A stretch of 64,000 nt of DNA. Source: Patiria pectinifera (Eukaryota; Echinodermata; Asteroidea; Valvatida; Asterinidae). The position numbers were made by a program, and so were the translations under genes. Under the pieces are notes generated by a model, which was not told the DNA's origin, did not search any database, and saw only the letters and a list, made by a program, of their open reading frames with translations. Where the stretch lies: positions 20,672,863 through 20,736,862 of the forward strand of contig CM057135.1 in the NCBI GenBank assembly GCA_029964075.1, given 5' to 3'. Shown one piece after another: positions 23,329 through 54,119 of this stretch; the stretch's first letter is position 1, and each line of letters starts with the position of its first letter.

Positions 23329-23485
23329 ACGATTTGTTCGTTGTTTGTGAGTGTGTTACAGAGTTGTAATAGAAAAAGAAACAGTGATTCTGCTGTTGAA
23401 TGGAGTTTGATTGAAAGTGAGAAAATGTAGATTTTTTTAGAGTGACAGCTACAATGATGTGAAATCTAATAATTATGTGACTTAC

Positions 23486-25807: not shown

Positions 25808-25927
25808 CTGAAAATGATAAGAAAACATGGTCAAATGAATATAGTCTGAAGTTGGGTAATGTTCTTTGTTTAAAAGCTGTTTATAAGAAAATCATGAAGA
25901 AATGTATGTAGCAATATGAAAGTGTAC

Positions 25928-26150
25928 CTGATTTAACACCAATGTCATCTTCTGTGCATGGAAGATCCCAGGTAGAGTTGCATTCAATGCCATACTGTAG
26001 GAATATTTCAGAATGGGAGCAAAGATATTCTGTAGCAGCTCTAACTTTCTCTGGTCTGACATTTTGAGACATGACAGCATGTTCATATCTCAGGTGTCTT
26101 TTTAGTTGAACTTTAGGGTAGGCGCATTGACTGATCCCGAATGCACGCAT
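25928..26150 (-). pseudogene. Helentron first exon
   Basis: Probable first coding exon, start codon at 26150, donor ATCAG/GTACAC at 25927. It encodes about 74 residues with a C2H2-like patch (CAYPKVQLKRHLRYEH), a plausible DNA-binding module seen at the N terminus of several Helentron proteins. No promoter is recognisable upstream. Confidence 0.6.
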
Positions 26151-26240
26151 TTTGAAACTACACAACGACTCGTGTAAGTATGAACATGTCACAGTTATAC
26201 ATAATACTGCCCAGAAAAAAATCGTAACCAACTTAAACAT

Positions 26241-33350: not shown

Positions 33351-34684
33351 TTAAGGGTTTTGAACAGCCCCCCTTTTTTTACTGTTCATCTGGCGTGTCT
33401 TTTGGAGTGTCCCGGACACCTGTGTTTGCCACAACCCCCCACTCCCCCACCGAAAAAAGTTTAAAAAAATATAATTATCATTCCACAAGTCAGTTGTAAC
33501 ATATGTCTGGTACAAAGATTTTGCCTTTACTGGGGGCAACTGATAAAAATCACCAGAGCTAATACACTGATATTTCCAAAAGGACTATGATTTCTTGAGT
33601 GTTTTATCTGTCGCATACGACCATGAACATAGCACAAGAGTTTATGACCCAGCATTGAAATTTCATCAACAATCAGAATCTGTAGTTATTTATTATTACT
33701 TATCTTTTCTTCGCTCAGTAGTTGATACGGCAATCTGACATTTGCTGTTATTGACAAAGCACTGTGAATAGTGGCACCATGTATATTATATGCAGCAACA
33801 CCTTTAGGCGCTGTAAGCAAAACTGAGATGTCGTCTGGATTTTCTACCATTCTTCCAAAAAGTCTTGTTGCCTCGTAATAAATACATTTAATCAAATGGC
33901 TTTTCCCTGTGCCTGCTCCACCAGTGACAAATACATGAAACGGTTCAGGATTTTTACCATTCACTTTGTCCAAACACCATTGCCTGACTTTGTAAAACAC
34001 CTGTTTTTGTTTAGCATTGAGACACCTCAACAAATTCATTGCTTCTTGTTTCGATACATTTAATCTGTGTGGCTCAATATTATATTTGATATCATCGTCT
34101 TTCTTGGATTTCAAATCAGGAATTTTTGACTTGTTATCACACTCGTCCACTTGTGCTTGTTGCTGTCCTTCACATTCAAGTCTGTCCTTTTCACTTTCTG
34201 GAGCTATCAATGCCCAAGCATCTTCTTGTGGACCAAACTTCTCCAGCATTTCCTCAGCTTCATATATTGCCTTAGCATTAGCTCCATACAACGACTGGTT
34301 ACTTTCAACAATAATTCTCACAGGTTTCAACATTCCACCAAATATAATAATGCCATTTCTATAAAACTCCTCGTATGTTTCAAACTGTTGCAGTTTTAGC
34401 TGGGCATCAACACGATATGGAAGGTACAACTGCAATATGCTCTGGTAGTACTTTTCAGGACATTTTGCTAATGAAAATCTAGGAATTCGTATAACAGCTG
34501 GATCAGTTCGACTTCGTTTCTGTATGTGGCCTAAACCATTCTCTAATTCATATACCGGGGAACGAGTTGTTTTAGCCATGTTTGTATATATAACTCTACA
34601 ATCTGAGCAAAATGTTGCCAAGCACATTGTTTCGAATTTGTCAGTATTTGGTCTTGCTAGGTACCTATCAACTCTACTAGTCAT
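33351..34684 (-). pseudogene. Helitron PIF1-type helicase, C-terminally truncated
   Basis: The 33686-34684 part is open for 332 residues: it starts in the Rep-helicase linker and includes Walker A (FVTGGAGTGKSHLIK, about 33905-33950) and TAPKGVAAYNIHGATIHS. After a stop at 33686 the Walker B block [10 protein letters not shown] (about 33650-33680) and, in another frame, [10 protein letters not shown] (about 33515-33540) follow; similarity fades near 33420. The last motifs (including the final SF1 motif) are missing, so it cannot unwind DNA. Next to Rep, as in all Helitrons. Confidence 0.85.
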
Positions 34685-34789: not shown

Positions 34790-35773
34790 TTACAGACACG
34801 ATAAACTGCTTCTTGTGCTGAGACGATTATGCAAATACACACAGCCAATTTCCTTCATGCTCTGTCTTGCATCCAAATGTCCTTTCTGAGCCTCTGCCTC
34901 AGCATGTGACAACAACATACCCATTTCACGTTCAGCTTTGGACATATACGATACCACGTAAGCAACACAAGCATAAGCATAACAAATATACTGAATATCC
35001 ATGTTTGCATTCCAACATCTTATCAAATCTGGATTGTACAAATTGACCCATACATCTTGTGGCTGTCTCTTATGAACTAATCTGGCTTTGCAACTTAATA
35101 CATCATTAGCTTTTTCAAAATCACTTTGTGTCAGATTTATACTTGCAAAATAAATCATTGGTTGTCATGTGTTCATTCTCAGTTTTCTGTATTGCAGTCC
35201 ATATTGATTGCAGCAATTCCTTAGCCTTATATTTTTCACTGCTTTCACCATTAGTTTGATCCTCATCGTCAATTGGCATGGAACAGCAATGAATGTTCGT
35301 TCAGATGGAGGTCTTGGGAAATTAAACCTACACTCAGTACCCTTCTTTTTACACGACTTGGAATGCTGACTGCTGTGCAACTGTACGTGACTTATAATTT
35401 CATTTAATTCTTCATCCTTGTCCTTTGATGGTAATTTACAACTTATATATTTGTCAACAAACTGTACAACCTCTCTTTCACTATCATCTCCCAACTTCGG
35501 TGCATTTTCAATCCAAAAAAGACAATGTGTATGTGGCGACCCTCTTTGTTGAAATTCTACTCTGTAAAAATAGTCTATGACTTTTCCTATCGGTTCAGCT
35601 CTGGACAGTATAACATCTCTCAGAAACGTATGGAATCGCTGATCAAACATTCTCACAGCAGTTACAGGATTACTTCGCAATATGGTACATTTCTCATTCC
35701 AGTCCAAACCTTCTACATCTCTAGAATCACCTTGCTGTCTTAAAACTGTATTGATTACCTCAGGCCATCGCAT
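34790..35773 (-). pseudogene. Helitron Rep (HUH nuclease)
   Basis: Rolling-circle nuclease. 35165-35773 starts [15 protein letters not shown] and contains the HUH block [19 protein letters not shown] (about 35500-35560), then [19 protein letters not shown]. 34790-35158 carries the tyrosine region, DIQYICYAYACVAYVVSYMSK (about 34940-35000), in which the two-Tyr spacing of Helitron Rep is preserved. The two parts are separated by a short interruption near 35160. Rep cleaves the donor strand and joins it to the target; here it is followed directly by the helicase. Confidence 0.85.
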
Positions 35774-35815
35774 ATCTGCTGCAGAAAACGAACAAAACCA
35801 TGCTGGTATTCCTAA

Positions 35816-36607
35816 TTATAGCCAAAATCTGATCATAGTCAAAACATCCTTCTGTGCTGCTTGCCAGTATGGGGGTGTACCACGAATAGGCTTCAGAAAT
35901 ATATATCCACTATCTGACTTCAACGTGTCTTGTAATTGGTCCCTGTCAATATACATGGAGGCATTCACACTGTCACCATTATACATTTTATCAGAGCCTT
36001 TTCGCAATGCAATAGAAACACTAGACATAACTCTCTGAATCTCTGACAAATGTTGAGCATAAAAGATATATTGAGTACACATTGCAAATCTATTATCAAC
36101 ATTCATCAATCGGTTATGGAAATATCTGCTAAGTGTCAATTTCACTTCACGATCATCATCAAAAATAGGTTGACCTGACGGAAATAATGCTGGAAAGCAT
36201 TTGGCTTCGTTACCCTTTTCCATTAACTCTCTAATTGGACTATTGCCTTCACATGGAGCCACACACAGCACTTCATCAAAATACTGATCAAGTATTTCCT
36301 GTCCTACATTAGTTGGCTGAAGACAAGTGTCTAATGCAATGCCTCGTAAACGATCATTATCAGTTTCCTCATCACTGTTATCACTTTCATCATTGGCTTC
36401 TTCTTTCAAATCATATAGAGACTGATCGATTTCATTATCATCTTCACACAACGGATTGTCCCAATAAGCATTTAATTGTATGTCACTGAACCATTTATTA
36501 TTATGCTGGAGATGTCGTAATGCATTCTCCACATTTTCTTTATTCACAAACTGATATTGATAATATCCTTTATTAGTCAATTTCCTCTTCAACTTGACTC
36601 GGATCAT
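35816..36607 (-). pseudogene. Helitron-like N-terminal region of Rep
   Basis: Helitron_like_N-type region of 263 residues, open. Acidic in the middle (NDESDNSDEETDND), followed by FPALFPSGQPIFDDDREVKL and YFHNRLMNVDNRFA, the landmark phrases of this domain (about 36050-36200). It ends with PYWQAAQKDVLTMIRFWL next to the Rep start, where a frameshift near 35790-35815 breaks the join. Confidence 0.82.
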
Positions 36608-36631
36608 CTGATCATCACTTTGGGGCCTTGG

Positions 36632-37311
36632 CTATGCTTTGACTGTGTCTGTTACATTTGATGGTACACATACAACTGGACCTCGTACACCATGTTGTCC
36701 GCCTTTAGGCAATGCAATCATTTTCATGAACGGTACATTTATTGCAATTAGATGCTCTTCTAATGTATTCAAACATGCTAATTCCTCAGGGATGTCCATC
36801 AGGTTTAAACTATTCACATTAGCTTCAGCAGGTACTTTATTAACAAGTAATTTTCTATGACAGGTATAACAAATCCATAAACATGATCTGCTAGATTCTG
36901 CAATCATACACAAGCATGAAGATATTTCTCACTAATAGATGTCTGATCTTTGTATTTGTACAGGTTACACTGTATAACTTGCTTTCGAAACAGCAGTTTA
37001 TGACAACAAGCACACACATACTCAGGTCCTTTAGCTATGCTTTCTTTAAATTTCTTTGTAACAAAACAAATTTTACATCTTTTCACTTTGTTAATCACAG
37101 CACGTCTGTAATTCATCTTTGCCATACTTTTACGATATTCACTATTTATTTTATACTTCCTTTTTCCATACTTATTAATTTTACCCTGTAAGATGTCACA
37201 CATCGGTATTTTTGATGCTTGCAATGAGCTTTCTTCTACATGAAGCATTGCCATGATATTTACATTTAGCTCTATTAATTTTCTTCTGTCTATAAGCAAC
37301 ATCTTCATCAT
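36632..37311 (-). pseudogene. Helitron zinc-ribbon-like modules
   Basis: Two Cys-rich modules known upstream of Helitron Rep: RCKICFVTKKF with CACCHKLLFRKQV (about 36960-37080) and WICYTCHRKLLVNKVP (about 36820-36870), the latter followed by PEELACLNTLEEHLI and PFMKMIALPKGGQHG. The Cys pairs suggest metal-bound folds, probably for DNA binding. A frameshift near 36905 lies between the two. Confidence 0.7.
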
Positions 37312-37338
37312 ACTTTGTTTTCAAATCAGCTTCTCTCT

Positions 37339-38589
37339 TTATTCCATATCTTCATGGTACTTTCTTTTCCCCTCAGTGATTAGCTTCTCTCTGTATTCAG
37401 GATTATTGTAATACTTTGTTTTTCCATCATTGATTACCTTGATTCTGTATTCAGCATTATCACAATATTTGCCTTTCAATGTGTTGATCAACTTCTCTCT
37501 GTACTCAGGATTCTGGCAATACTTGGCTTTCCCCTTGTTGATTTTCTTCTCTCTATATTCAGGATTATCATGGTAATTTCTTTTCCCACTGTTTTTTTTC
37601 TTTTCTTTGTTTTCTTGGTTGTTACAATATTTCTCTTTTTTATGCTTTAAAATACCTTTTTTATGCATTTCATTGTTATAGTTTCTTTTTTCAGCCTTTA
37701 ATCGCACTGTTTTATAGTCCATGTCACTATTGTACTTTGTTTTAAGCAATTCCTTCTTCTGGTCTGCATTTTTTTGGTAGTTTTTCTGGTTATAATTTTG
37801 TTTTCTTTGCTTTTGCTCTTTGCTCCTATTCGTGCTATTCTTTTCACCTTCCACCTTGTCTGCATACCTTTCCTTAGCTTTCTCTCTTTTCCTTTTTTGT
37901 TGTAATTTTCTATTTCCTCGCTTACGCCTTTTACACTTCAAAGTGTTTTCTGATTTACTGGAGATGCCATCTTTCACACATTCTGCTTCTTTGTTAGTTG
38001 TTGCTTTTTGTTGTCCATTATCAAATTGCCTTCTTGATTGACTTGAATCATGAACTGACAACACAACATCATAATGAATTCTACGCCTATGATACAAGTA
38101 AATTGCCTCATCTAATGTTACAGCCTCTCTGTCAAAGGTGCTTGCAGAGAAAACATACCACTTATTCACATCTTCAAAAGTATATATGTCTGTATGCAGC
38201 ATGTGTGCAATCTTCATGATTTCAACCTCTGTAGCCCACACTCCACAGTCAAACGTTCTTTGCCTTATGACATATTCTGCCACATTAACAAACCCTTGTC
38301 GCAGAAAACCATTGAATGTATGTCCATTTTTTAACAAGTGATTGACAGTAGCCATTCTTAACTGCAAATGATTATCTTCCGTTCCTGACACAGCAAATGA
38401 TATCCCCCGGAAAAAGCAGTTTCCATCACCTTTAATTTTCTTCACTGAATTAGGTTTTCCCATCTCTTCACATTTATCTGACACCCCATTACATTCCAGA
38501 GATATTTGGCCTATTCCATGTTTTCTGCACAGTCCTTTCTTACTAGCATATGTCAGAGGAACAAACTTAAAACCTTGTATTTGTTTCAC
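37339..38589 (-). pseudogene. OTU protease plus 18-residue basic repeats
   Basis: A 416-residue open frame. Residues about 50-190 form an OTU-type cysteine protease: KGDGNCFFRGIS with the catalytic Asp-Gly-Asn-Cys near 38415-38430, and the catalytic His in RIHYDVVLSVHD near 38050-38070. OTU enzymes remove ubiquitin. A very basic stretch (RRKRGNRKLQQKRKREKAK) follows, then an 18-residue tandem repeat of the type NPEYREKxINxGKxKYxx, at least five clear units at 37345-37620 and more degenerate ones toward 37750 and across the frameshift to about 37210. OTU domains are known in some Helitrons; the repeat is not familiar to me. Confidence 0.8.
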
Positions 38590-38622
38590 TTCCTTGATTT
38601 CAACATCACTACCATCATCAGC

Positions 38623-39017
38623 TTAATTACAACTCGTTTCATTGAAACTAGGTTCCTGACCTTCCTTCTTATTATTTGGCAGGTCACTACATGTACTTGG
38701 CAAGCTGCTACAAAAACCAGGAACTTCTCTAGAACCACCACTTCCTTCATTGCCTTCTCCTTTACTGTGACTACTTCTTCCCAATAACAGTTGCTCCGTC
38801 TCCTGTTTACTATCATCAGCATCTTGCCTTACCTCATCATCCAGCCACACAGATACACCTGTAATTTCAAACTGCTCATTATTAGACAAAGACATCGATC
38901 TTACCAAATCAGTACAATACCTGTGTACATCTTGTCCTGTAGCCACACGTTTCAACAAACTCCGTCCTTCACTGACCTGGCAAACTTGCTGATTTCTACA
39001 GTGAGAATCAAAGATAT
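38623..39017 (-). pseudogene. C-terminal part of the UL36/C76-like protease domain of the Helitron
   Basis: Starts right at the LTR element boundary with the FDSH block (about 39000-39012), where the His would be catalytic, then RNQQVCQVSEGRSLL and an approximately 100-residue tail rich in Ser/Glu. The other half of the domain lies beyond the LTR element at 48310-48937; the ATAT target duplication and the unbroken Helitron frame show they were contiguous. An in-frame TAA near 38621 separates this from the OTU part. Confidence 0.65.
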
Positions 39018-40705
39018 TGTGGCGAAACCGACCCCTGACACTATTTGTGGCGGAACCGGTGATTGGCAGAACCCAGGGGGACCGGTCTTCTTTATCCCAG
39101 GACTCTAGCCAACTCCTATTATCCCACAAAAAATATTTATTAACCTTGCGCAAGGATGAGCGGTTACCCCGACGAAAGGGGGGATATAGTTAACGAACGG
39201 CGGACTAAGCCTAGGGGCAGTTCGTTTGGTGAAAATATACCACCGTTTTGTGATTGCTTGACTCAAATGCGAACAGAGCAATAATAAATTATAATAACCT
39301 TCACAATGATCCAAATAATTATCACAGAGACAAATGTTTTCAAGGACGATCAATAATTGGTCTTATTCTCTGATCAACTATTCAATAATCTTTATATAAA
39401 CAATCAATCAATTTATACAATTATATAAAACACAGCTGTAATAATCCTAATATCTCACATAAGGGTCAACTGCACCCTTTGGAATGATATAGGTTATAAT
39501 CCTCACAAATGATAACCTTCACTTGTGATAAACGTTTTAGTGGTGAACTGCACCACGACTAATAACCCTAACGTGGTCAACCGTACCACGACTAATAACC
39601 CTCACAGCCACCAGAGTAACCCTCAGCTGAATTGGGGTAACACTCACAGGAATTGCACAACGGGGTACTGAACTATAATAACCCTTACACAATCCCAATA
39701 ACCCTCACAGCCACCAGAGTAACCCTCAGCTGAATTGGGGTAACCCTCACAGGAATTGCACAATGGGGTACTGAACTATAATAACCCTTACACAATCCCA
39801 ATAACCCTCACTGCCAGGGTCAATGTGTGTAAATAGTACAGGCAACACGGGATAGACTAACCAGAGAATTGTAATAACCCTCATACGACCCCGAGAACGC
39901 TACACCCGGTAAACCTCACAGAGGACAGGAAGCTCAAGTCAACTAGGGTTGCACTGCACCGGGAACCAAACCAATAGGTCTAGAACAAGCGGCACAAGCA
40001 ATCCTTCTAGTCAATCCGAGCTTCACTTATCTCCTAATCAATTGGTTTACCCCTCACATTGACACAAGGCCCACTATAGTCTAGACCCAAATGTAACCCG
40101 CACCCACTACACAGCAATAGCCCTCAAACAACTACGGGGATTGTTATCTAGGTCAGGATCGACTAATCAGTCAATGGTAACCCTCACACAGGTTCGGGTA
40201 ACCTTCACAAGAACTCAGAGCACGAAACGAGTCAACCTGATAACCAAACTAGTTCAATGATTACACCTAGGATCGCCTCCCCGTCGTTCTCTCACCATAC
40301 GGTGCTCAAGAGTCGACCGGCAATCAACACAAATCAAAGACCCACTAGCCAATAACCCACAGGCTTAACAACTCCTGCTCTCTTGTTCTTACACTGATAC
40401 GGACCCAATAAATATACTAAATCACCCCAGTACAATTCCACTCACCAACTCAGCAAAAACAATGGCGCAGACTCTGGCGTTAGGCTCTTTTGTTTTCCTG
40501 CAACAATATAATAGTTATGTTAGACTCGACGCCATCTTCAGAACTGCCCGGGCGATGTCGCAACACCACGCTAAATCGCCCAGACCTGTGCAAATGCGCG
40601 TCTGTGATTGGTCAAGGCGCGCACTATTAATATTAATGCTCTCGGCGCGCATGCATAATTAATTAGTTAGACTCGCTGCAGTCTGTACTACCCTGTTTCG
40701 CCACA
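39018..40705 (-). repeat. 3' LTR of the nested element
   Basis: 1688 bp, TGTGGCG to CGCCACA. It contains about 18-20 scattered TAACCCTCAC-like decamers between 39480 and 40200 and an internal tandem duplication of about 100 bp (near 39598-39800). It matches 46618-48305 end to end. Confidence 0.95.
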
Positions 40706-41478
40706 CAGGCCCCAGCAAAGCTTAATCCGTCCCGGATTAAATAGCTTAATACAATTATAAGAAACAGGGCCCATATATTTACATAATTATAATATAACTA
40801 AATTCCATGTGTGAGGTTTACCCACACGACAAGTGCCGTGTGAGACCAACATCCTAAATACAATTATAGCAATGAAGCGTCCATAATATCCAAGCTATTA
40901 CCACCGCTTGAGGTTTACCTAACCTCAGAAGTGATTTATACAATGATAAAAGATGTACACATTTGAGGTAGTTTACTAATTTTACAATAATCAATGTCTT
41001 TGGAAATATACATGTTTTATTTCAACAAGCCATACAGTTGTTTGGTGGTTCGCAACACTTTATAAAAAAAATCTCTATAAAAATAGACAAAGCGAAACCC
41101 TTAAAGCAAGAAATATATAACACTTTGGAAAACACGGTGAGCTCAGAAGTAAAATCATGCATAATTAAGCAAAATCACACAAATAGTACACAAATTTCAG
41201 AGTCATTAGTGTTCATTAAACTTCTTGTACTCCCGTTGACCTACTTTTGTACTTAGACACCTCTTCGTGCACCAGTTTTCCATCTAGGTAGGTGTTGCGG
41301 AATATCCGTTCCTCATCTATGGCCTGCCGCATCCTCCTCACTGGTGGCTCGTCGACGGCTTTCTCCAGCTCAGATCCCGCCTGTATGATGGGGCTGAGAG
41401 GGGGCATTGATTCAGGGGTCCCGGAAGTCTCTGGACAAAATGTTTGGTTAGTATCGCTCTCTGCTTGAGATGACTAAC

Positions 41479-42777
41479 CTATCTATACCTAACTGGAAGT
41501 CGATGTTCCCTACGGGGGTACCTTGGGGTCCTCCCAGGGCTACTTGTCACTTCCCCTTCCCCATTACCTATTTGGTCAACAGTTAGATCCTCAAGAGGTT
41601 CTTCACTTAGTTCAGGCTCTACACTCAGCTGTTGCTCATGACTGAGCGTAGCCTCCGGAACCTCTGACACAGGTTCCTCAACAACAGTCACCTCGTGGGT
41701 AACTTCAGTGCAATCAGAAATTTCTTCTGGTTTCACCAGTTGTTCCTCAGCCATGTCAGGCTCATACTTCCACAGTTTTAGGTTCTCACCAGTGTATGGC
41801 TTGAGCCTATCCCCGTGAACTACAAAAGCCTCACCGCCAGGCTTTATCTGAATACGGTAGGTAACATCAGATAGTCTCTTAACCACCAAATATGGTCCTA
41901 CCCATCGCAATTCGAGTTTCTGAGACCTCCCCTTCTTCTTGGCTTTGTTGTACAGCCAGGCGAACTGGCCTTGCTGCAGGCCTTCGCCATGTACCCGGCG
42001 ATCGTAGTTTCGCTTCTGGTTTCTAGCACTCTGCCTCAGGCACCCCCTGGCTCTGCCATGTGCCTCTTGCAGATTCTGCCGTAACCTCTGAGCGAAATCC
42101 GTCGCCGTTGTGTCCTCTACTGTAGGACCTTCTACCAACAAATCTACTGGAAGCCTCGTCTCTCTCCCAAGCATCATCATGTTTGGAGATTCGCCAGTTG
42201 ACTCTTGGGGAGTGCACCGGTAGGCAAAACTTGCATACGGGAGGCACTCATCCCAGTCACGCTGTCTCCTCCTCGGTTCGATCATAATCGCAACCATGTT
42301 GACCAATGTCTTGTTGAAGCGTTCAACCATTCCATCTGACTTTGGGTTGTACGCCGTGGTCCTCGTCTTGGAAATTCCAAGGACCTTGCACATTTCCCCA
42401 AACACGGCCGATTCAAAGTTTGTACCCTGATCGGAATGCAATTCCAAGGGAATGCCAAACCGACAGACAAACTCACTGACAAACTTGTTAGCCACCGTCT
42501 CTGCCTTAGCATATGGCAGAGCGTACGCCTCCATCCATTTGGAGCAGTAATCACCGACTACCATGACCCAGACGTTGCCACTGTCGCTCCCGGGCAGTGG
42601 CCCCAGCAAGTCCACGGCCACTCTCTCCATGGGCTCGCCCACCAAATACTGTTGGAGTGGGGAAACTCTCCTTTTCACAGGAGATTTCTTCCTCCCACAC
42701 AGCTCACAACATCTGATGAATGACCTCACATCCGCTGTCATTCCCGGCCAATAGTATCGAAACTTCACTTTGGCCAA
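41479..42777 (-). pseudogene. Integrase of the nested LTR element
   Basis: The longest open part of the element: zinc-binding region, catalytic core and a C-terminal GPY/F-type module followed by an acidic tail. The order and the GPY/F module are those of Ty3/gypsy integrases. The reading frame upstream is separated from it by the LINE insertion at 42867-45117. Confidence 0.88.
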
Positions 42778-42889
42778 AGTCTTCTTGACACCTAGGTGAC
42801 CGCTAGTCCGACCACCATGTAACTCCTGGAGTACAACCTCTCTAAATTTATCAGGAAATACTAGTCCAGTGCTAGGGATGACCTCTCAT

Positions 42890-44364
42890 CTATCTTCAGT
42901 CAGCGCTTCTCCCCAGCTAGCAGTTCCACTGCCGCTGAGAAGTGGCAGAACTTCAGCTCATGCCTTTACGAAGCTGCTAAAGAAGTACTGGGGCACCCAA
43001 AGTGCAGGAATCAGGACTGGTTCAGTGATTCAGACTCCTGCATTTCAGAGCTCCTCAAAGCTAAGCGTAAAGCCCACCAGGCCTGTCTTGCCAAGCCCAG
43101 ATGCCAGAGAACCAAATCTGAGTTCGCCAGAGTGAAGGCAGAACTGCAACGCAAGCTCAGAGACATGGAAGACAAGTGGTGGGATCAGAAAGCTGAAGAA
43201 ATTCAGAGAATGGCAGACATGGGGGACACCAGAGGCTATTACCAAGCACTGAAGACTGCCTTTGATCATGGAGGAACACAGTCCAGCCCTCTCCTTGCAC
43301 CTGATGGCACTACCCTCTTGACTGAACAGGGCGACATTCTTGAACGATGGCGGACGCATTTCGATCAGCTCCTGAATCGAAGATCAAATGCTGACATCTC
43401 GATTCTTGAGGGAATCCCTCAGCGTCCAGTGCTTCTCAGCGCTGATGACCCTCTGCTCATGGATGAAGTGCGGCAGGCTGTACGAAGCCTTGCCTCCAAC
43501 AAATCCCCTTGAATGGATGGTATCCAGGCGGAGATCTACCAAAATGGAGAACAGATTACCAGTAATCTATATGATGTGCTCTCAGCCATTTGGAATGAGA
43601 AGTCTGTACCACAGGAGTTCAAGGATGCTGTCATCATTCCCATCTTCAAAAAGAAAGGCAACAAGCAAGAGTGTGGCAACTATAGAGGCATCTCACTCCT
43701 GTCAGTCGCTGGCAAAGTGCTTGGCAAAGTAATTCTGGAGCGCCTCAAACCCATCCTCGATGCAGTCCTCCCCGAGTCGCAGTGTGGCTTTCGTAGATCC
43801 AGATCGACCATTGACATGATCTTCACACTGCGCCAACTGCAGGAGAAAGCTCTGGAGCAGAACATGCCCCTGTACATCGTGTTCGTTGACTTTACCAAAG
43901 CCTTTGACACAGTGAACAGGGAGTGTCTCTGGTCTCTCCTGCGTCGATATGGCTGTCCTGAAGGCATTGTCAGCCTCATCTCTCAGCTCCACACTGACAT
44001 GATGGCTCAAGTCTCTCTCAACGGCCAACTCTCAGACCAGTTCACTGGGATTCAAGGTGTCAAACAAGGCTGTGTGCTGGCTCCTTCCCTGTTTTCCATC
44101 TACCTCAGTGCTGTCTTAGATCTGTGTCCAAAGCACGGTGGTGTTTATCTCAGAACACGTTCAGACGGGAAGTTGTTCAGCGCCAGCAGTCTCAAGGCCA
44201 AGACCCTGACCAGAATTGTTTGTGCTCGTGAACTGCTTTATGCAGATGACTCTGCCATGGTGTCACACTCTGCGGCGGAACTCCAGGCCATGCTTGATGC
44301 CTTCCACTCAGTCGCCCAAAGCCTCGGTCTTACCATCAACATCAGGCAGCACAGTTTCCAATGA
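42890..44364 (+). pseudogene. LINE reverse transcriptase
   Basis: The first part (to 43509) is the linker upstream of the polymerase (KWWDQKAEEIQRMADMGDTR). A TGA at 43510-43512 interrupts the SP-MDGIQAE join, where related proteins have Gly. The polymerase then runs open for 283 residues: NYRGISLLSVAGKVLGKV, FVDFTKAFDTVNR with the first catalytic Asp (about 43885), QGVKQGCVLAPSLF, and the YADD active site in ELLYADDSAMVSH (about 44240). Past GLTIN at 44340 the thumb region is lost by an internal deletion of roughly 50-60 codons. The enzyme would have copied LINE RNA at the target site. Confidence 0.88.
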
Positions 44365-45106
44365 TAACAGCCTGGACAAAGAGGTGGAAAGGCGCATTAG
44401 TGCTGCCGCTGCAGCCTATGGGAAGCTCCAGTCAAAGGTTTGGAAGAGACATGGCATCCGGCTAACAACCAAGTGCAAGGTGTACCGTGCAGTAGTCCTC
44501 ACCTGCTTGCTCTACTCCTCTGAAACCTACACTCTGTATCGTCGCCACATCATGAGACTCCAGCGCGTCCAGATGTACCAGCTGAGACATCTCCTCAAGA
44601 TCTCCTGGCGAAACAGGATTAGTAATGTGGAAGTAAGAAGACGAGCAGGCATCCCCAGTGTTGAGGCACTACTCACTCAGAGCCAACTGCGATGGAGCGG
44701 CCATGTAGCCCGCATGGACGACCTGCGGCTTCCTAAGGCCGTCTTATATGGTGAACTTATCAGAGGCGCAAGAAATAGAGGAAGACCCAAGCTGAGATTC
44801 AAAGACTGTCTCAAGAGACACCTGAAGGCCTGTGCCATCGATGTCGACTCCTGGGAGGTCACAGCAAGCGACCGTTTACGGTGGAGATCTGCTGTCAGAG
44901 GTTCTGTTACCCGCATTGATGACCGCCTGGCTGAAGAGACAGCAAAGCGCAGTCGCAAGCGTGCTGCCAGGGCTGCATTAGTGGCCAACCCTCATGCTCA
45001 CATCTCTCGCTTTTGCTGCCGCCACTGCGGCAGTCAGTGTTCTCACCAAATTGGACTCTATGCCCACGAACGATATTGCCGAAGTCGTCATACTCCTCAG
45101 GAGTGA
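44345..45106 (+). pseudogene. LINE C-terminal region with zinc finger
   Basis: After the deletion the frame resumes at GSTVSNDNSLDKEVERRI and continues to the stop at 45104-45106. Landmarks: YKVYRAVVLTCLLY-like stretch, the QLRWSGHVARMDD block (about 44685-44720) with GRPKLRFKDCLKRHLK, both common in the C terminus of many animal LINEs, and a terminal CCRHCGSQCSHQIGLYAH finger (about 45015-45070). Confidence 0.82.
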
Positions 45107-45617
45107 CAGCCAGAGAGACTAGTCGCCACCTAAACAACTTCCCGTCATCGGATTCCCAGTTCCTATAAAGGACACTGTCCCGCACCTCCAACTGATCCCA
45201 CTGGGACCAGAGTGTCTTGTGCGCCGAGGAGGCGGCCGATACAGTCTCCCAACTGGGACGACTGCCCGACTCCTCTTTTGCCCGTACTATCCACCCAACG
45301 TTAGGATCACCATGTTGTGCTTCTCTGACTGCATTCCTAGGCAAGTGTGGTTGGGCAAAGATGCCCCTCACACTCGCCTCAGGAATCGGCAAGTCAGAGT
45401 CAACCTCACGGTAACCCTCAATGGTCTTGGTCACTTTGGCATCATCCGATGCCCCGACGGTCGCTGTCGCTTCATCAGCGTCGGCATGACCGCACTGCTT
45501 GCAGGTCTTCCGGGACAACCCGTCAGCATTTCCATGCTTACGCCCAGGCCTGTGTTGAATTGTCACATCATACTCGCTGATCTCCTCGAGCCACCTCGCA
45601 AGCTGGCCCTCACTCAC
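44907..45617 (-). pseudogene. RNase H-side fragment of pol in the nested LTR element
   Basis: Open stretch whose start resembles the connection/RNase H end of gypsy pol; the genuine part is about 45125-45617, and the rest reads into the LINE. It is followed toward the 5' LTR by a dispersed repeat, beyond which no reverse transcriptase is recognisable. Confidence 0.65.
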
Positions 45618-45649
45618 AATCTTTGGCTGTGCCCCCTTTCTGACAACCT

Positions 45650-45816
45650 CTAACTAATAATAATAGTTAACACTTATATAGCGCCCGGATCCATAATATG
45701 CTCTTAGGCGCTGTACACATTAAAAAGATTTAAAAAAAAATTACAGTGAGGAAAATTTAGCCATTAAAAAAACATACTTTTTCTTTTAGCATTTAGCCAT
45801 TTAAAAACCGTTTTTG

Positions 45817-45847
<31 letters not shown>

Positions 45848-46025
45848 TTTAACATACATTATAAACCCAGCAATTAAAAAATCGTAACCTATGAATTATA
45901 AAGCCTGCTTAAAAAGGTATAGATCAATTCATTAAATTATTTACATTAAATTTATACGTTATAAACCCAGCCAATACAAAAAACTATCCTATGAAGTAAG
46001 AAAGGCTTGCTAAAAAAGATGAGTC
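45650..46025. repeat. Dispersed repeat with GT microsatellite in the LTR element
   Basis: An inserted repeat whose left end (ACACTTATATAGCGCCCGG then GGCGCTGTACAC) resembles the widespread TATATAGCGC-type short repeats of marine invertebrates. It contains (GT)n followed by a T-run at 45815-45853 and a diverged duplication (TAAACCCAGC at about 45863 and 45963). Direction and target duplication are unclear. Confidence 0.6.
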
Positions 46026-46142
46026 CGAAGAGAGACGAGCCCTCTCCCACTTCAACCACTGAACCTCCATTCTTGAGCGGTTAAGCCTCATCATGGACAG
46101 AGCCCTTGTCCGCCTCCACCGAGGTGACACCGCTGTCCTTTC

Positions 46143-46457
46143 TCATACTGACGTTTCCTCCTGACTAGGAAACTCAGTCTCCACGAAACTCTCTACACTT
46201 GGCCACTGACCACTCGGCGATAACGGTACCTCACCAGTAAACTCAGGCTGCGGGACTTCTTGTCCAGGGCCTCCCGAATTTCGAAAATCCTGCGTACTGA
46301 CTACCACCCGGTGGATTCTCAACAGGATCGGCAGCTGCTGTCTTGCAGTATGTCGCAAAGATCGCAACTCGGCCCGAATCCCCAACAGAATGCGCACACC
46401 AACCAACAATACAACAAACAAAACAATACCCAAAGCAGTAACGACCCAGGTTAACAT
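46143..46457 (-). CDS. Small membrane-type open frame near the 5' LTR
   Basis: A 104-residue open frame beginning with a strongly hydrophobic segment of about 25 residues (residues 2-27), then a basic stretch and a Pro/Glu-rich tail. It lies about 140 bp from the primer-binding site, the place where gag would start. I do not recognise a family. It could be a fossil accessory frame of the LTR element or fortuitous. Confidence 0.3.
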   Translation of the reverse strand: MLTWVVTALGIVLFVVLLVGVRILLGIRAELRSLRHTARQQLPILLRIHRVVVSTQDFRNSGGPGQEVPQPEFTGEVPLSPSGQWPSVESFVETEFPSQEETSV

Positions 46458-46617
46458 AACCCGCTAACCTCGTTACCAATAATCCTGGCAGTGTACCTAA
46501 CTGAGGTGCACTCACTAACAAAAAAATCAACCACACTTTATCACTCTTTATTCCAAGTTCACAAGTTACAACAATTGAATTTATACAATCACAAAATATC
46601 CCACTTCTGACACCATT

Positions 46618-48305
46618 TGTGGCGAAACCGACCCCTGACACTATTTGTGGTGGAACCGGTGATTGGCAGAACCCAGGGGGACCGGTCTTCTATATCCCAG
46701 GACTCTAGCCAACTCATATTATCCCACAAAAAATATTTATTAACCTTGCGCAAGGATGAGCGGTTACCCCGACGAAAGGGGGGATATAGTTAACGAACGG
46801 CGGACTAAGCCTAGGGGCAGTTCGTTTGGTGAAAATATACCACCGTTTTGTGATTGCTTGACTCAAATGCGAACAGAGCAATAATAAATTATAATAACCT
46901 TCACAATGATCCAAATAATTATCACAGAGACAAATGTTTTCAAGGACGATCAATAATTGGTCTTATTCTCTGATCAACTATTCAATTATCTTTATATAAA
47001 CAATCAATCAATTTATACAATTATATAAAACACAGCTGTAATAATCCTAATATCTCACATAAGGGTCAACTGCACCCTTTGGAATGATATAGGTTATAAT
47101 CCTCACAAATGATAACCTTCACTTGTGATAAACGTTATAGTGGTGAACTGCACCACGACTAATAACCCTCACGTGGTCAACTGCACCACGACTAATAACC
47201 CTCACAGCCACCAGAGTAACCCTCAGCTGAATTGGGGTAACCCTCACAGGAATTGCACAATGGGGTACTGAACTATAATAACCCTTACACAATCCCAATA
47301 AACCTCACAGCCACCAGAGTAACCCTCAGCTGAATTGGGGTAACCCTCACAGGAATTGCACAATGGGGTACTGAACTATAATAACCCTTACACAATCCCT
47401 ATAACCCTCACTGCCAGGGTCAATGTGTGTAAATAGTACAGGCAACACGGGATAGACTAACCAGAGAATTGTAATAACCCTCACACGACCCCGAGAACGC
47501 TACACCCGGTAAACCTCACAGAGGACAGGAAGCTCAAGTCAACTAGGGTTGCACTGCACCGGGAACCAAACCAATAGGTCTAGAACAAGCGGCACAAGCA
47601 GTCCCTCTAGTCAATCCGAGCTTCACTTATCTCCTAATCAATTGGTTTACCCCTCACATTGACACAAGGCCCACTATAGTCTAGACCCAAATGTAACCCG
47701 CACCCAATACACAGCAATAGCCCTCATACAACTACGGGGATTGTTATCTAGGTCAGGATCGACTAATCAGTCAATGGTAACCCTCACACAGGTTCGGGTA
47801 TCCTTCACAAGAACTCAGAGCACGAAACGAGTCAATCTGATAACCAAACTAGTTCAATGATTACACATAGGATCGCCTCCCCGTCGTTCTCTCACCATAC
47901 GGTGCTCAAGAGTCGACCGGCAATCAACACAAATCAAAGACCCACTAGCCAATAACCCACAGGCTTAACAACTCCTGCTCTCTTGTTCTAACACTGATAC
48001 GGACCCAATAAATATACTAAATCACCCCAGTACAATTCCACTCACCAACTCAGCGAAAACAATGGCGCAGACTCTGGCGTTAGGCTCTTTTGTTTTCCTG
48101 CGACAATATAATAGTTATATTACACTCGACGCCATCTTCAGAACTGCCCGGGCGATGTCGCAACACCACGCTAAATCGCCCAGACCTGTGCAAATGCGCG
48201 TCTGTGATTGGTCAAGGCGCGCACAATTAATATTAATGCTCTCGGCGCGCATGAATAATTAATTAGTTAGACTCGCTGCAGTCTGTACTACCCTGTTTCG
48301 CCACA
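46618..48305 (-). repeat. 5' LTR of the nested element
   Basis: 1688 bp, same length as the 3' LTR and close to identical. It carries the same TAACCCTCAC-like series and internal duplication. The outer end borders the ATAT target duplication at 48306-48309. Confidence 0.95.
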
Positions 48306-48937
48306 ATATAATACATCCCATCTTGAGCAATTGCAACAAATGTATTTCCATGGACGGTTATGAAACATGCATAGTACTGCTGAAGAGTCTGTTCTAAGGC
48401 ACGATTCATGGGCACCATATGAAATTCAGCTAAATTATACTCTTCTCCTAATGTACCACATACAGGATCATGAAACCTCATACTGAAATGATGATTGAGC
48501 AAATCCAAATCATTTGGCAATTCATTTATCAACAAGTATCGATTATTCATTGTAGAACGGTGAGATAAATGTCTGTATAACTCATTTCCAGTATTCAGTG
48601 GAGTATTAACATCACTACGACACCACTCTTTCAACTGCTTCACTTTGCTGTATAAGACACAGCACAAACTGTTTGGTATGCATTGTTTCCCTGAACTCCA
48701 TCCAAATCTATGATGACCTTGATGAAAGCTTCCCTGTAAAGTCTTTGTTGCCGATCTATTATGGTTCCCAACTCCTGCAATATCACTGCAACTCCTTTGT
48801 CTACTACCATCTATACCCTCATGGCTTATTTCTTTGTGTTTGCTACTCACCAACTTGCACATTGCACGTAGCATTTTACTTTTGACATCATGCTCCTCTA
48901 CCATTTCATGTACCACCTTCTTTTCTTTACATTTCAT
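48306..48937 (-). pseudogene. N-terminal part of the UL36/C76-like protease domain of the Helitron
   Basis: Carries the likely catalytic Cys in FGWSSGKQCIPNSLCCVLY (about 48680-48735), then a typical run TPLNTGNELYRHL and NNRYLLINELPNDLDL and, close to the LTR boundary, ACFITVHGNTFVAIAQDG leading into the Tyr-Tyr-Ile before the FDSH block at 39000. The plan Cys - NELP - FVAI - DSH resembles the herpesvirus UL36 tegument deubiquitinase (peptidase C76), relatives of which occur in transposon polyproteins. The assignment is by motif pattern only. Confidence 0.6.
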
Positions 48938-48980
48938 TTCACAGCTTTCAGTGATAGGTGACAGCTGTCGTTTCCTGTTT

Positions 48981-49838
48981 CTAACTACATACGATTTTTT
49001 TCTGTCTGCTTTCAGATGTCATATCATTATCTTTTTGATTATTCTTCAATTCACAACCTTGCTTATCAGTATTACTGCTCAGGCCCACACTGTCTTCAAC
49101 CTTTTCATTTCTTCTACATTTTCTACTTCCTCTTCCAACAGTTTTGGAGGTGTTAGTTTTATTTTCACCTGCATCATCTACTTTTGGAGACTGGCCTTTC
49201 TTGCTCCTTAATGAGTAACCACTAGTCTGCTTTGGCAACAACACTTCTATCATACAACCTGTACTTGTTTCCTTTCGTTTTGTTTCACTTACGATTTTTG
49301 TTTCATTGTCCTGGATGCTGTCCTTTGTGCACATTCCTCTCACAGGGCTCTGATTGACCACATCATCACCGGCGCATGTCTCCTGAACTGTCAAATCAAA
49401 CATGTTGTCATCTGTTGGAATACTAAGATCATACAAAAGAGACTGAGAATAAGTGCTCTTAGCACATTTTAGACACACCCATGTCACTGATTTGTTTGCC
49501 AACTCCTGTTCAATCTTCAAGAAATTCATACACTTGACATGATACCAAAGGCTACAGCCATCACATTGCACTTTATTGTCAGCTGAATAAATCTTCTCAT
49601 CACACAACCAGCACTGTTTATCATGATCAATGTGTGTAATCTGCATTGTCCTTCTTTTACATACCCTCTCCTTATTTCCATCATGTACTTCCGAGTTCAT
49701 TACTTTTGCCTTCTTTGACATGCTTACATTCATTTCCTTTTGTCTGAAGGTATCACTGTGATTGACACACCCCTTTACATTTGTCATACAAGTTCCACTT
49801 GTCTTCCTTTTCGTACTTTTCTTTTCTCCATTTCTCAC
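48981..49838 (-). pseudogene. Helitron PHD-finger region
   Basis: A 285-residue open frame. A PHD-type C4HC3 finger is visible: CWLCDEKIYS, CDGCSLWYHVKC, then WVCLKCAK (about 49460-49630). PHD fingers read histone tails or ubiquitin-like signals. The rest is basic and Ser/Thr-rich, with YSLRSKKGQSP near 49190. A frameshift in a T-run near 48998 separates it from the protease part, and an in-frame TAG (49839-49841) from the upstream frame. Confidence 0.78.
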
Positions 49839-49841
49839 AAC

Positions 49842-50765
49842 CTACATCTTCTTTATGATTAGCGAAACACTTCGTTTTGTTTGGCTGAATATTTTCTTCT
49901 GAACCTTTTCATAGACTTGCCTTTCTTCCTTGCTCAACCACAATTCAATCACTTTCCCATTTCTCCTTCTATTGTACGATTCTTTGCAGATTTCTCTTCT
50001 TACTTTCTTTCTACTGACTTTTACCTGCTTCTTTCTTGATCCCTTGCCACACCCATCACATACATCTTTTCCAGTGTTACCTCTAGCACAGGGCTTCTTC
50101 TTTAGCAAACTACTGAGCCATTTTACTGCTCGCTGATTACAAACCCTCTTCCTGGTCAGCTTGTGGATTCTTCTTCGTCTCAGTTCACATACCTTTGCTC
50201 TTGTACCACGGTTCAGGCTCTTCAAATGTCCAACTGGTATCACCACACTATGTTCATAGTCTCCAGCCAAGCTGTTAACAGGCACGCTGGCCATAGAACT
50301 CATACATATCTCAAGACACTGCTTGATTCCTTTAGACTGTTTTGCCATGCTCTGTTCATAATCTTTATCCCGACTGTTTTCTGACTGTTTATCCGACTGT
50401 TTGCACCTTTTCTGAGAATCCACCCAATTGACGGGTACGCTGGCCCTTGTACCTGAACAGAGAGGACGCTGCCTCATCTGTTCTGATGACACTGCATCTA
50501 GTACAATCACGTCACTGTGAATCAATTGGTTTGCGCACTGTCCAGCAGTCATGGACAGACGACGTCCCCGAGGAGGTACCAACCTCAGAACTATTTGCGA
50601 AGAGGAGATGGAAATGGGAGATGGTGACAAGTGACAAAAGGACCATGACTTAAGAGGGGAATGACAAACGTACTGCAAACAAAACACAGACAATGATGGA
50701 AAAGGATCTTCATCTTGCAGACGGCATCGTCGCACAGGGCTCTCAGCTTTCGTGAACTTCACCAT
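49842..50765 (-). pseudogene. N-terminal region of the Helitron polyprotein
   Basis: Begins with Met at 50765 and is open for 307 residues up to an in-frame TAG. No known domain is recognised in the first 100 residues. The C-terminal half is strongly basic with Cys pairs (CDGCGKGSRKKQVKVSRKK) and two copies of an ASVPVN phrase (about 50280 and 50435). It may bind nucleic acid. Either start or upstream exon is uncertain. Confidence 0.55.
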
Positions 50766-51166: not shown

Positions 51167-51545
51167 CCATAGTCCGCGGGACGCGATATTTTTTATTACA
51201 CAACTATCTGGGGTACTTTGTGCGCTTTCCTATGGGGCTTGGTTTTTATAACCAGGCTTGAGGGGAGGCTACTATTTTTCAACTTGGTACGGATTTCGGA
51301 CTTTATTTCCCTTTAAAAAAAATCCTCCAGAGCCTCAGATCAGGAAAAGAAAAAGTAAATTGCCGCTATACAAGTAGTATCCGACTGAAAAATAACGTTT
51401 TTAAGATTCAACTTAAAATTGTTGAAAAAAAGAGCAAAATCTTTCATGATCGAGCGAGGAATCGAACTCGAGACCTCCGATCATTAGCCAATATGCCTAA
51501 CTACTAGGCAACGGCGGTGCTCGAAAAATCCCTGCAATTCATAAG
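51167..51545 (-). repeat. tRNA-derived SINE, copy 1
   Basis: A 380-bp repeat with a tRNA-like head on the minus strand (about 51453-51527): A-box-like TTGCCTAGTAGTTAGGC and B-box GAGTTCGATTCC. Its body ends near an ACACAACTATCTGGGGTAC phrase (rc). It is about 90 percent like 57985-58368 in the opposite orientation. RNA polymerase III boxes in the head are the basis for calling it a SINE. Target duplications were not resolved. Confidence 0.75.
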
Positions 51546-51577: not shown

Positions 51578-54060
51578 GTGAAAATGCTCCAAAATCATCA
51601 GTTCAGTGTCTCATGCACTTTCCGACTGGAGTGTACTGGAAAGGGTGAAGTGCAGTTATTTACGGAGCACAGCTGGTCACGTTTCCTTGAGTATACCGAC
51701 GTCTGGAAGGCCTTCACAAAAGGACCGCAAGCCGAGATAGCAAGGGCCAGGCATGCCAGGGCCAAGGCAGTTCATCGCCAAAACATGCGCCACGTCAGCC
51801 GGCGCAAATGTTGCTACGGATCAGCATGATCAGCCCGTCAGTATGCGGTTGCAATCTCGCGATCCTAGAGAATGCCGATCATCATCGGCGAGATACAAAT
51901 CGTACACTTCCCTCCACTTCGAGATTGTGTAATATAAATATCTAGTAACCTACCATCATGTCCATGACCAGCATGACCAGATGACTTGACTATTTATGAT
52001 CATGATGATCGAGATAAAATAAGGGCAAGGGCATTAAGGGGGGGGGGGGCTCTGAAACCTTATGGCATAGGGGGGCCTGCATGCATAGTACATGTAGATT
52101 TGTATGCCTTCCTAAAACTACTGAAGCCCCTGTCACAGCCACACTACGTGGAGCCTCATCAGCTCATAATTCTAGGAGTAACCTTTGCGTATCCTAATTC
52201 CTTATGAGTTCCTTATCAATTTTTTTCAATACTCAGCCGTACGCTTAAAACGTCGAATTTTTTTGATTACTTTGACTTATGTGCGACGCACATCTAACGT
52301 ACAAGTAACGAATTCAGCCCATCCATTGCGTATGAGATGCGTATGTGTTGCGTATGCAGTGCACAACGTTATTTTTTGGGCTGCAAATAGGTCAGTATGC
52401 AGTGCGCATGCCGAACGTATTCCGGACGCACCCGACTTATGCCGACCGCATGCTTGACGCACTTCTGAGCGTATTCCCGCCGCATTTCCGCCGCTCGCCG
52501 TCCAGCGTGCGTTGCATCTGCGCTGCAAGTACGCTATGTATACGTCCAATACAGGCGGCTCATATGCAGACGGGGTGCGTCACGAACACATAGCGTACTC
52601 GTAACGCACTTGACCGATGCGGGACCGATGAGCTGCGTATTTTTAAATTTATACCTGCGTAACAGCGTACGCAGCGTAGTTTTGTGCATGCCCAAAACTA
52701 TCCTGCGTACTGGGCCGTACCATGCGTATATCTGCGTACATAAAACCTTCACAAAACGATAGAGATGCATATGAGGTGCGTATTGTGCGTACGACTGCGT
52801 ATGAAAAAAATGTCAATGCGCAACTCATAAGGAATTAGGATACGCAGAAGTGTGACAGGGCCCTTAAATGCAGTCAATGATTGTGTAAACGTTAGTGAAC
52901 ATGTTCTGATGTTAGTGCCTTGCAATTGTGTAGTCATGGTATGCCTATTGGTCATGTTGGTACTATGTAAATGTAAACCTCCACATTTTTTTTCTGTATA
53001 GGTCATGCTACAGTTAGTACACTGACAAGTCCAAGGTGAAGAGAGCAGTTCAAGCCCAGCAAAAAGAGAAGTCTAAAGTTGCAGGTACATTTTATTTGTA
53101 TAGAAACTGCTGCTTCCATTTCTATTCATTAACAAATTTGGTAACCTTCATGAAAAAAAAACTGCAGGGGGAGGATGATGTGATAAACTTATACAAGTAT
53201 ACTTGTGAGGCGCTGTTGATAATCTCCCTCACCCAGTATTTATCTGATGTCTGTAACTAAGTTACACTCGAAAACTGTTGTCATATAGTTCAGTTCACCC
53301 AGTGTCCATGGGAAATGTATTTTGTTTATGAAAAGACAGTCCAAAGAGTTTAATGTATCTTTTGAAACCTTTACTTTTAGCTATAAAAACGCAATGTACG
53401 TGTAACGTGTACCATCCACAAATATATACATGGCCATGTACATGCACATGTGTAAACCAGTATTAGGCCCAAGAACTGATAACTTTCTTTCCATTTATTT
53501 GTAATTTCGAAGAAGGGGAATGTTTTAATGTATACTGTTGTTTACCCTCCCCAACCGACACCCCCCCCCAAAGATAATGTCACAAATTTATGGAAGAAAC
53601 ATGACATATATCCTCCTGATTTTGTTTATTTGAGAGCAACACAACATTTTCATTGAAAAACATGGCCTTATTTCAATAAATACAACCAAATAAATGTTAA
53701 TTACATGTAAACAGTTGAATAAGATTGTATTTTCTGTTTCTCTACTGTATTCTAGAAACTGAAACAGCCAAAAAGGTTCCCCACCCTCCCTGTGAAAACG
53801 AGAAGACTCCGTTCAGCCACGCAAACGGTTTCCAAGACTGCAGCAAGATCTCAACATGTTTTTCCCAAACAGTGCATCCTTTGCAGGAAGGAAAAGTGTG
53901 TGACCTGCCGAGTCACAAGGAAGAGGAGGCAAGAACCCCTGGTCACATGTACTACCCTACAGGCTGAAAGATTGCTACAGGCGGCGGAAGACAACAACAA
54001 TGAAGAACTTTTTATGCACATTGTCAATTCCAAAATGGATGTGCTCAGAATTGTTTCGGT
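51578..54060 (+). pseudogene. Remnant of an uncharacterised multi-exon gene
   Basis: Three putative exons on the plus strand. Exon A (51578-51829) encodes LFTEHSWSRFLEYTDVWKAF-type sequence. Exon B (53002-53084; acceptor CTGTATAG, donor GCAG/GTACAT) encodes SCYS, an in-frame TAG, then YTDKSKVKRAVQAQQKEKS. Exon C (53756 to about 54060; acceptor TATTCTAG) encodes a basic stretch and FPKQCILCRKEKCVTCR, then TCTTLQAERLLQAAEDN. Order and phrases match a family of uncharacterised invertebrate proteins with Cys-rich ILC-type modules. Exons B and C do not join in phase by the obvious sites and A has no clear donor, so this is probably a pseudogene. A MITE sits between A and B. Confidence 0.45.
52126..52863. 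mobile_element. Non-autonomous TIR element rich in TGCGTA
   Basis: About 740 bp with inverted ends: CCCTGTCACA-type outer part and a longer shared inner phrase, GCGTATCCTAATTCCTTATG at about 52187-52206 and, reversed, at 52824-52845. The left arm has a ~35-bp insertion relative to the right. The interior holds dozens of TGCGTA/TACGCA or close variants. No transposase; target duplication unclear, so the superfamily is not assigned. Confidence 0.7.
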
Positions 54061-54119
54061 GCATTTGTGTAATTGCTCCTATTGTTTCTTGTATTTGACA
54101 CTTATACATGTACTGTAAT

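What the first reader, a model, noticed from the sequence alone, without database searches (positions are those of the whole stretch)
37339..50765. Helitron polyprotein with a PHD finger and two different deubiquitinase-like protease domains
Seen: a C4HC3 PHD finger (49460-49630), a Cys-NELP-FVAI-DSH plan like UL36/C76 proteases (48310-48735 plus about 38990-39012), and an OTU protease with DGNCFFRG and RIHYDVV (38050-38430), all in one largely continuous minus-strand frame that runs into HUH Rep and helicase. OTU in Helitrons is known; a second protease of the C76 type together with a PHD finger in one element would suggest that these transposons edit ubiquitin and read chromatin. The C76 assignment is inferred from motif order.
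Basis: partly seen in the sequence, partly recalled or inferred. Interest (0 to 1): 0.78.

Follow-up and report, generated by a model that had tools for sequence, protein, structure and literature searches.

The report
Dead Helitron with two deubiquitinase domains
This is a broken animal jumping gene of a known kind that once carried two different ubiquitin-cutting enzyme domains plus a chromatin-type zinc finger; the enzyme pair was already described in 2022, and only the added zinc finger looks unreported.

Summary
The domain calls hold. On the minus strand a decayed Helitron reads PHD finger (Pfam E 3.5e-7), UL36/C76-type protease, OTU protease (E 7e-7), DUF6570, HUH Rep, PIF1 helicase. The C76-type domain is cut by an LTR retrotransposon (39018-48305, LTRs 98.4% alike, 4-bp target duplication). 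The part before the cut scores 21.8-23.1 bits to Herpes_teg_N, below the cut-off of 25; with the flanks joined in frame it scores 35.3-37.3 bits, whereas 4 of 4 shuffled tails stay at 22.2-22.8. The copy is dead: at least eight in-frame stops, five frame changes, the insertion, and a helicase cut off near 33.45 kb.

Erven et al. 2022 (PMC9741609, passages seen) reported UL36-like 'VTD' deubiquitinases in Helitrons, 121 of them also with OTU, and activity of three zebrafish domains. A PHD finger together with both was not found in my literature searches, but it rests on one dead copy, and no relatives were found in collections that hold no animal genomes. The PHD lacks two tyrosines of the methyl-lysine cage, so histone reading is unsupported.

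The parts
49842..50765 (-). N-terminal Lys/Arg-rich region, ATG at 50765, preceded by a pyrimidine-rich stretch ending CAG (possible splice acceptor, by eye); no Pfam match; ends at an in-frame stop
49464..49613 (-). PHD finger (C4HC3), inside open frame 48984-49841
   Evidence: PF00628 E 3.5e-7, 30.6 bits, cut-off 24; PDB PHD chains E 8.4e-5 and weaker
48306..48730 (-). VTD (UL36/C76-type) deubiquitinase-like domain, first part with catalytic Cys (48680-48682), cut by the LTR element
   Evidence: PF04843 E 1.6e-4 alone; E 1.2e-8 joined; controls
38986..39017 (-). VTD domain, second part as matched by the profile, with the Asp-x-His motif FDSH (DSH at 39001-39009); 39014-39017 is one copy of the ATAT target duplication
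39018..48305 (-). LTR retrotransposon (Gypsy type by its integrase) inserted into the VTD coding region; LTRs 39018-40705 and 46618-48305, 98.4% alike; 4-bp target duplication ATAT
   Evidence: integrase domains
38086..38433 (-). OTU cysteine protease domain; Cys codon 38416-38418, His codon 38074-38076 just beyond the profile match
   Evidence: PF02338 E 7e-7; OTUD5 3tmo E 5.9e-10
37342..37900 (-). Lys/Arg-rich degenerate repeats (KY-NPEYREK type) after the OTU domain; approximate limits, by eye
   Evidence: translation; self-match 37325-37512 with 37379-37566 at 73%
36470..36841 (-). DUF6570, interrupted by an in-frame stop at 36632
   Evidence: PF20209 E 4.3e-10 (above cut-off) and 6.9e-5 (just below) on the two sides
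35519..36121 (-). Helitron_like_N / HUH Rep with HTH motif at 35533; stop at 35816
   Evidence: PF14214 E 5.2e-22 for the C-terminal part (above cut-off) and 6.5e-5 for the N-terminal part (below); REP_ORF2-G2P E 7e-7
33737..34024 (-). PIF1 helicase N-terminal part (Walker A GGAGTGKS at 33922); readable helicase sequence ends near 33.45 kb (by eye)
   Evidence: PF05970 E 1.6e-8

Best explanation
It is the dead remnant of an autonomous animal Helitron whose ancestor encoded, in order, a basic N-terminal region, a PHD finger, a UL36-like (VTD) deubiquitinase, an OTU deubiquitinase, a basic repeat linker, DUF6570, an HUH Rep nuclease and a PIF1 helicase, as one long protein or as neighbouring proteins. 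Stops, frame changes and truncation broke it, and an LTR retrotransposon landed in the VTD region (order of these events not determined). In life the Rep-helicase would have driven rolling-circle transposition (general knowledge of Helitrons). The VTD and OTU domains most likely removed ubiquitin from element proteins or host repair proteins, sparing them from degradation (inferred). The PHD most likely tethered the protein to chromatin or to a partner protein (weakly inferred; binding to methylated H3K4 is not supported). The confidence given is for the anatomy; I put the deubiquitination role at about 0.6 and the PHD tether role at about 0.3.
For: Domain matches. In-frame continuation of VTD across the insertion with a target duplication, and a 14-bit gain over the trimmed first part that 4 of 4 shuffled tails do not show. 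Cys and His/Asp-x-His kept in both proteases. Long open stretches beyond randomisations. The domains lie on one strand, upstream of Rep. Published VTD+OTU Helitrons and in vitro activity of Helitron VTDs.
Against: One broken copy only; no relative found in viral contigs (4 scans), genome contigs (1 scan), plasmids or phages (1 tblastn each), none of which holds animal genomes. The PHD part is joined to the VTD part through a change of frame, so fusion in one protein is inferred. No element termini and no AP-endonuclease were identified for this copy. The single-sequence fold of the VTD first part was uninformative (mean pLDDT 31.9). phmmer to solved structures gave nothing for the unjoined VTD piece and only a tegument protein at E 0.77 for the joined one; the solved Helitron VTD was not among the hits.
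Confidence: 0.82

Rival explanations
1. The PHD-bearing region (48984-50765) is a host gene fragment captured by this copy or this lineage, or part of another element lying beside the Helitron, not a standing component of the element.
For: Helitrons capture genes (general knowledge; also PMC4021074 title). The PHD frame differs from the VTD frame. PHD does not occur in the main text of the VTD paper. Only one copy is available.
Against: The PHD frame overlaps the VTD frame at a run of A's, with 594 codons and one stop in the frame, as if both had decayed as one coding unit. I saw no element boundary between them, by eye.
Confidence: 0.3
2. The domains are separate proteins made from separate ORFs or spliced exons of the element, not one polyprotein. 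Some apparent stops and frame changes are introns or true gene ends.
For: Helentrons are described with additional ORFs for OTU proteases and other proteins (PMC4067079). A pyrimidine tract ending in CAG lies just before the ATG at 50765. There is a stop between VTD and OTU at 38623.
Against: VTD (beyond the insertion) and OTU lie in the same frame. Stops also fall inside DUF6570, Rep and the helicase, so decay explains them. [quoted passage not shown]
Confidence: 0.35
3. The proteases mainly cut the element's own polyprotein into pieces, not ubiquitin from substrates.
For: Viral deubiquitinases often process polyproteins, and cutting of the Rep/helicase/endonuclease by the OTU protease has been suggested.
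Against: Zebrafish Helitron VTDs cleave ubiquitin substrates in vitro. Cleavage sites were not looked for here.
Confidence: 0.15

Closest known systems
VTD-containing Helitrons/Helentrons with OTU (Erven et al. 2022, PMC9741609), e.g. zebrafish DrT2 with one VTD and one OTU
   Same: UL36-like protease with Cys and Asp-x-His plus an OTU domain in a Helitron with Rep and helicase; [quoted passage not shown]
   Different: This copy also has a PHD finger upstream, is dead, and shows no AP-endonuclease; it is cut off within the helicase
OTU-bearing Helentrons (Thomas et al. 2014, PMC4067079; also PMC5148889)
   Same: OTU cysteine protease with Rep/helicase
   Different: VTD and PHD were not in the passages seen; those elements carry a C-terminal endonuclease
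Ginger1 transposons (PMC2836005)
   Same: A DNA transposon protein combining a ubiquitin-like protease (Ulp1 or OTU) and, in Ginger1-9_HM, a PHD finger with Ulp1
   Different: Integrase-type DDE transposase; OTU or Ulp1 but not both; unrelated transposition machinery
Herpesvirus large tegument protein deubiquitinase (UL36, BPLF1, M48)
   Same: Same protease family by Pfam PF04843
   Different: Distant match; the virus protein is a tegument protein, not a transposon protein

Membership tests
Helitron (rolling-circle transposon) | HUH Rep nuclease domain | tested here: met
   PF14214 E 5.2e-22, REP_ORF2-G2P E 7e-7, HTH motif at 35533
Helitron (rolling-circle transposon) | PIF1-family helicase following Rep | tested here: met
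   PF05970 E 1.6e-8 with Walker A; readable only to about 33.45 kb
Helitron (rolling-circle transposon) | Element termini and host-site junctions | not tested
   No second copy was available to define the ends
Helentron | AP-type endonuclease after the helicase | tested here: inconclusive
   Not seen in this copy, whose helicase is cut off. The motif scan found no later helicase motif on the minus strand between 21.3 and 33.4 kb, but it is insensitive: it also missed the readable motif III of this element near 33.55 kb
VTD (UL36/C76-type) deubiquitinase | Significant match to the Herpes_teg_N profile | tested here: met
   Joined: 35.3 and 37.3 bits, cut-off 25. Unjoined pieces: 21.8 bits and no match
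VTD (UL36/C76-type) deubiquitinase | Catalytic Cys and Asp-x-His | tested here: met
   Cys at 48680-48682 and DSH at 39001-39009; paired with the tegument deneddylase Cys and FD-x-H in a non-significant alignment, E 0.77
VTD (UL36/C76-type) deubiquitinase | Papain-like VTD fold | tested here: inconclusive
   Single-sequence model of the first part only, mean pLDDT 31.9
VTD (UL36/C76-type) deubiquitinase | Ubiquitin cleavage | not testable with these tools
   Reported for three zebrafish Helitron VTDs (PMC9741609)
OTU protease | Profile match and catalytic Cys and His | tested here: met
   PF02338 E 7e-7; 3tmo E 5.9e-10 aligned over Cys and His
PHD finger | C4HC3 zinc ligands and profile match | tested here: met
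   PF00628 30.6 bits, cut-off 24; ligands read by eye
H3K4me3-reading PHD | Aromatic cage (BPTF Y17, Y23, W32; positions recalled) | tested here: not met
   Aligned residues are Ile, Lys and Trp in the alignment; the fourth cage position lies outside that alignment

The most novel reading that the evidence does not exclude
A lineage of animal Helitrons has stably fused a PHD finger to two non-homologous deubiquitinases and the Rep-helicase, so that deubiquitination is directed to a chromatin or chromatin-protein site during transposition.
Probability: 0.3. Interest if true: 0.55.

Novelty: new member of a known kind. Interest (0 to 1): 0.3.

Why it matters
Two unrelated deubiquitinases in one transposon suggest that escaping or using the host ubiquitin system matters for rolling-circle transposition; this has been noted before (PMC9741609), and the window adds one more case. 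If the PHD proves to be a standing part, it gives a testable targeting module for that activity.

Tried and rejected
No whole genome is held for the window. Relatives were sought without success: viral contigs with the VTD first part, the OTU piece, the Rep piece and a two-sequence Rep alignment, genome contigs with the joined VTD, plasmids with the joined VTD, phages with the OTU piece; going by their descriptions none of these collections holds animal genomes, so the misses say little. phmmer against solved structures found nothing for the unjoined VTD piece and only E 0.77 for the joined one. The AlphaFold model of the VTD first part was too poor to use, so no fold search was run. I rejected 'motif resemblance by chance' for the C76 call because the score gain depends on the true sequence beyond the insertion. 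I rejected 'intact, working gene' because of the stops, frame changes, insertion and truncation. Weak Pfam rows such as TALPID3, Disintegrin and zf-P11 were set aside as below their cut-offs.

Literature for PHD together with Helitron: searches (21 of 21 papers listed; 25 of 84; whole-word 'helitron', which misses papers using only the plural; 25 of 10,038; 20 of 1,155; 5 of 5; 25 of 824; 7 of 7) did not ask for PHD. For most listed papers I saw only the listing and the start of the abstract. Passages on the PHD term were opened in PMC9741609 (0 occurrences), PMC4289320 (0 occurrences), PMC2836005 (PHD in Ginger1), PMC4021074 and PMC6875170 (a fellowship, a thesis and a reference title on CR1). 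[quoted passage not shown] it does not call it PHD in the passages seen. Supplements and Repbase were not available, so the claim that the PHD is unreported is limited to these searches.
Full report
WHAT IS THERE. On the minus strand of the window, from about 50765 down to about 33450, lies a decayed Helitron. In coding order: a Lys/Arg-rich region without Pfam match (49842-50765); a PHD finger (49464-49613, PF00628 E 3.5e-7, above its cut-off); a UL36/C76-type protease domain; an OTU protease (38086-38433, PF02338 E 7e-7; best solved relative OTUD5, E 5.9e-10); a basic repeat linker; DUF6570 (E 4.3e-10 and 6.9e-5 on the two sides of a stop); the HUH Rep region (PF14214 E 5.2e-22, REP_ORF2-G2P E 7e-7; HTH motif at 35533); and the first part of a PIF1 helicase (E 1.6e-8), readable by eye to about 33.45 kb.

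THE SPLIT PROTEASE. This is right. An LTR retrotransposon occupies 39018-48305: its two LTRs align over 1689 bases at 98.4% identity, it is flanked by the 4-bp duplication ATAT, and it carries an integrase on the minus strand (rve E 8.1e-11, Integrase_H2C2 E 3e-20). With the flanks joined in a script and one duplication kept, the frame runs straight into FDSH. Pfam Herpes_teg_N gives 21.8 bits for the first piece alone and no match for the second piece, but 35.3 bits (E 1.2e-8, profile 1-164 of 183, cut-off 25) for the joined read and 37.3 bits for a trimmed read. The trimmed first part alone gives 23.1, and 4 of 4 shuffled tails give 22.2-22.8 bits (six tails were made, four submitted). The catalytic Cys (codon 48680-48682) and Asp-x-His (39001-39009) are both present. 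A direct phmmer comparison with solved structures gave only one, non-significant row, a large tegument protein deneddylase at E 0.77, whose alignment pairs the Cys and the FD-x-H; the unjoined piece gave none, and the solved zebrafish Helitron VTD did not appear.

STATE OF THE COPY. It is dead. In-frame stops lie at 49842, 38623, 37339, 37321, 36632, 35816, 35165 and 33686, and the frame changes at about 49.0 kb, 36.9 kb, twice at 34.7-34.8 kb and at about 33.55 kb (read by eye). The open stretches are still far longer than chance: 307, 251 and 427 codons, against maxima of 190, 131 and 186 in 2000 first-order Markov randomisations each (a rough control, because the segments were picked for being open). 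So the region was coding and decayed later. 'Largely continuous frame' in the finding is therefore generous. The LTR insertion looks fairly recent by its LTR identity, but I did not date it or order the events.

WHETHER PHD BELONGS TO IT. The PHD frame runs 594 codons from the ATG with one stop and overlaps the VTD frame at a run of A's near 48.99 kb. That is what one coding unit with a small length change would look like, but a captured fragment cannot be excluded with one copy. In the alignment with the BPTF PHD, two of the aromatic cage tyrosines (cage positions recalled from the literature, not from a call) are Ile and Lys while the Trp is kept. So methylated-H3K4 reading is not supported; another histone state or a non-histone partner remains possible.

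RELATIVES. None found: 4 scans of viral contigs, 1 of genome contigs, 1 tblastn in plasmids, 1 in phages. The window itself holds a second, different Helitron remnant (20614-26243 minus), five pieces of which match this one at 25-46% identity and which ends in a weak endonuclease match (Exo_endo_phos E 4.7e-4, below its cut-off).

WHAT IS KNOWN. Erven et al. 2022 (PMC9741609; abstract, outline and 12 passages of 21 seen, supplements not seen) named the VTD family. [quoted passage not shown] and that three zebrafish Helitron VTDs react with or cleave ubiquitin substrates, one with a crystal structure. They suggest protection of transposition proteins from degradation. PHD does not occur in the main text (0 occurrences). 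Thomas et al. 2014 (PMC4067079, passages) describe OTU proteases in Helentrons. [quoted passage not shown] PMC2836005 (passages) describes Ginger1 transposons with OTU or Ulp1 and, in one listed family, Ulp1 with PHD. A UL36-related domain in a fungal Helitron was noted in PMC4289320 (passages). My searches for PHD with Helitron showed no report of a PHD finger in a Helitron protein, within the papers listed and mostly from listings alone.

HOW IT LIKELY WORKED. Shown here: the domain content, the catalytic residues and the order. Established for the family: rolling-circle transposition by Rep-helicase (general knowledge) and ubiquitin cleavage by Helitron VTDs. Inferred: the two proteases keep element or repair proteins from being degraded or marked; the PHD tethers the protein. 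Self-processing of a polyprotein is a live rival.

VERDICT. The reading of the domains was accurate and the C76 inference is confirmed with a control. The main surprise was already in print. The remaining novelty is the PHD in a VTD+OTU Helitron, from one dead copy. I file it as a new member of the known kind of VTD+OTU Helitrons, interest 0.3.

Noticed in passing
39018-48305: LTR retrotransposon (Gypsy type by its integrase) with 98.4% alike LTRs and target duplication ATAT; its interior seems interrupted by another element.
   Followed up: yes
42865-45106: LINE-type element on the plus strand (approximate limits from open frames) with a reverse transcriptase domain (RVT_1 E 1e-31), lying inside the LTR element.
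   Followed up: partly
20614-26243: Second, different Helitron remnant on the minus strand with PIF1 helicase (E 8.8e-10) and a weak, below-cut-off endonuclease match after it, so Helentron-like.
   Followed up: partly
30976-31821: Plus-strand DDE_Tnp_4 transposase (E 6.5e-25) with HTH_Tnp_4 (E 3.1e-13), perhaps a Harbinger-like element (that name recalled).
   Followed up: no
51183-51544 and 57992-58355: Inverted repeats of about 364 bases, 94% alike, about 6.4 kb apart, which look like long terminal inverted repeats of an unidentified element; one open frame between them (53759-54118 plus) had no Pfam match.
   Followed up: partly
9035-10259 and 17175-18865: Another pair of long direct repeats (88-96% alike in three pieces) with integrase-like matches between them at 12033-12888 minus, probably a second LTR retrotransposon.
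   Followed up: no
3954-5013, 6972-7749 and 19415-19942: Related arrays of roughly 160-base repeats, the second and third in opposite orientation to the first.
   Followed up: no
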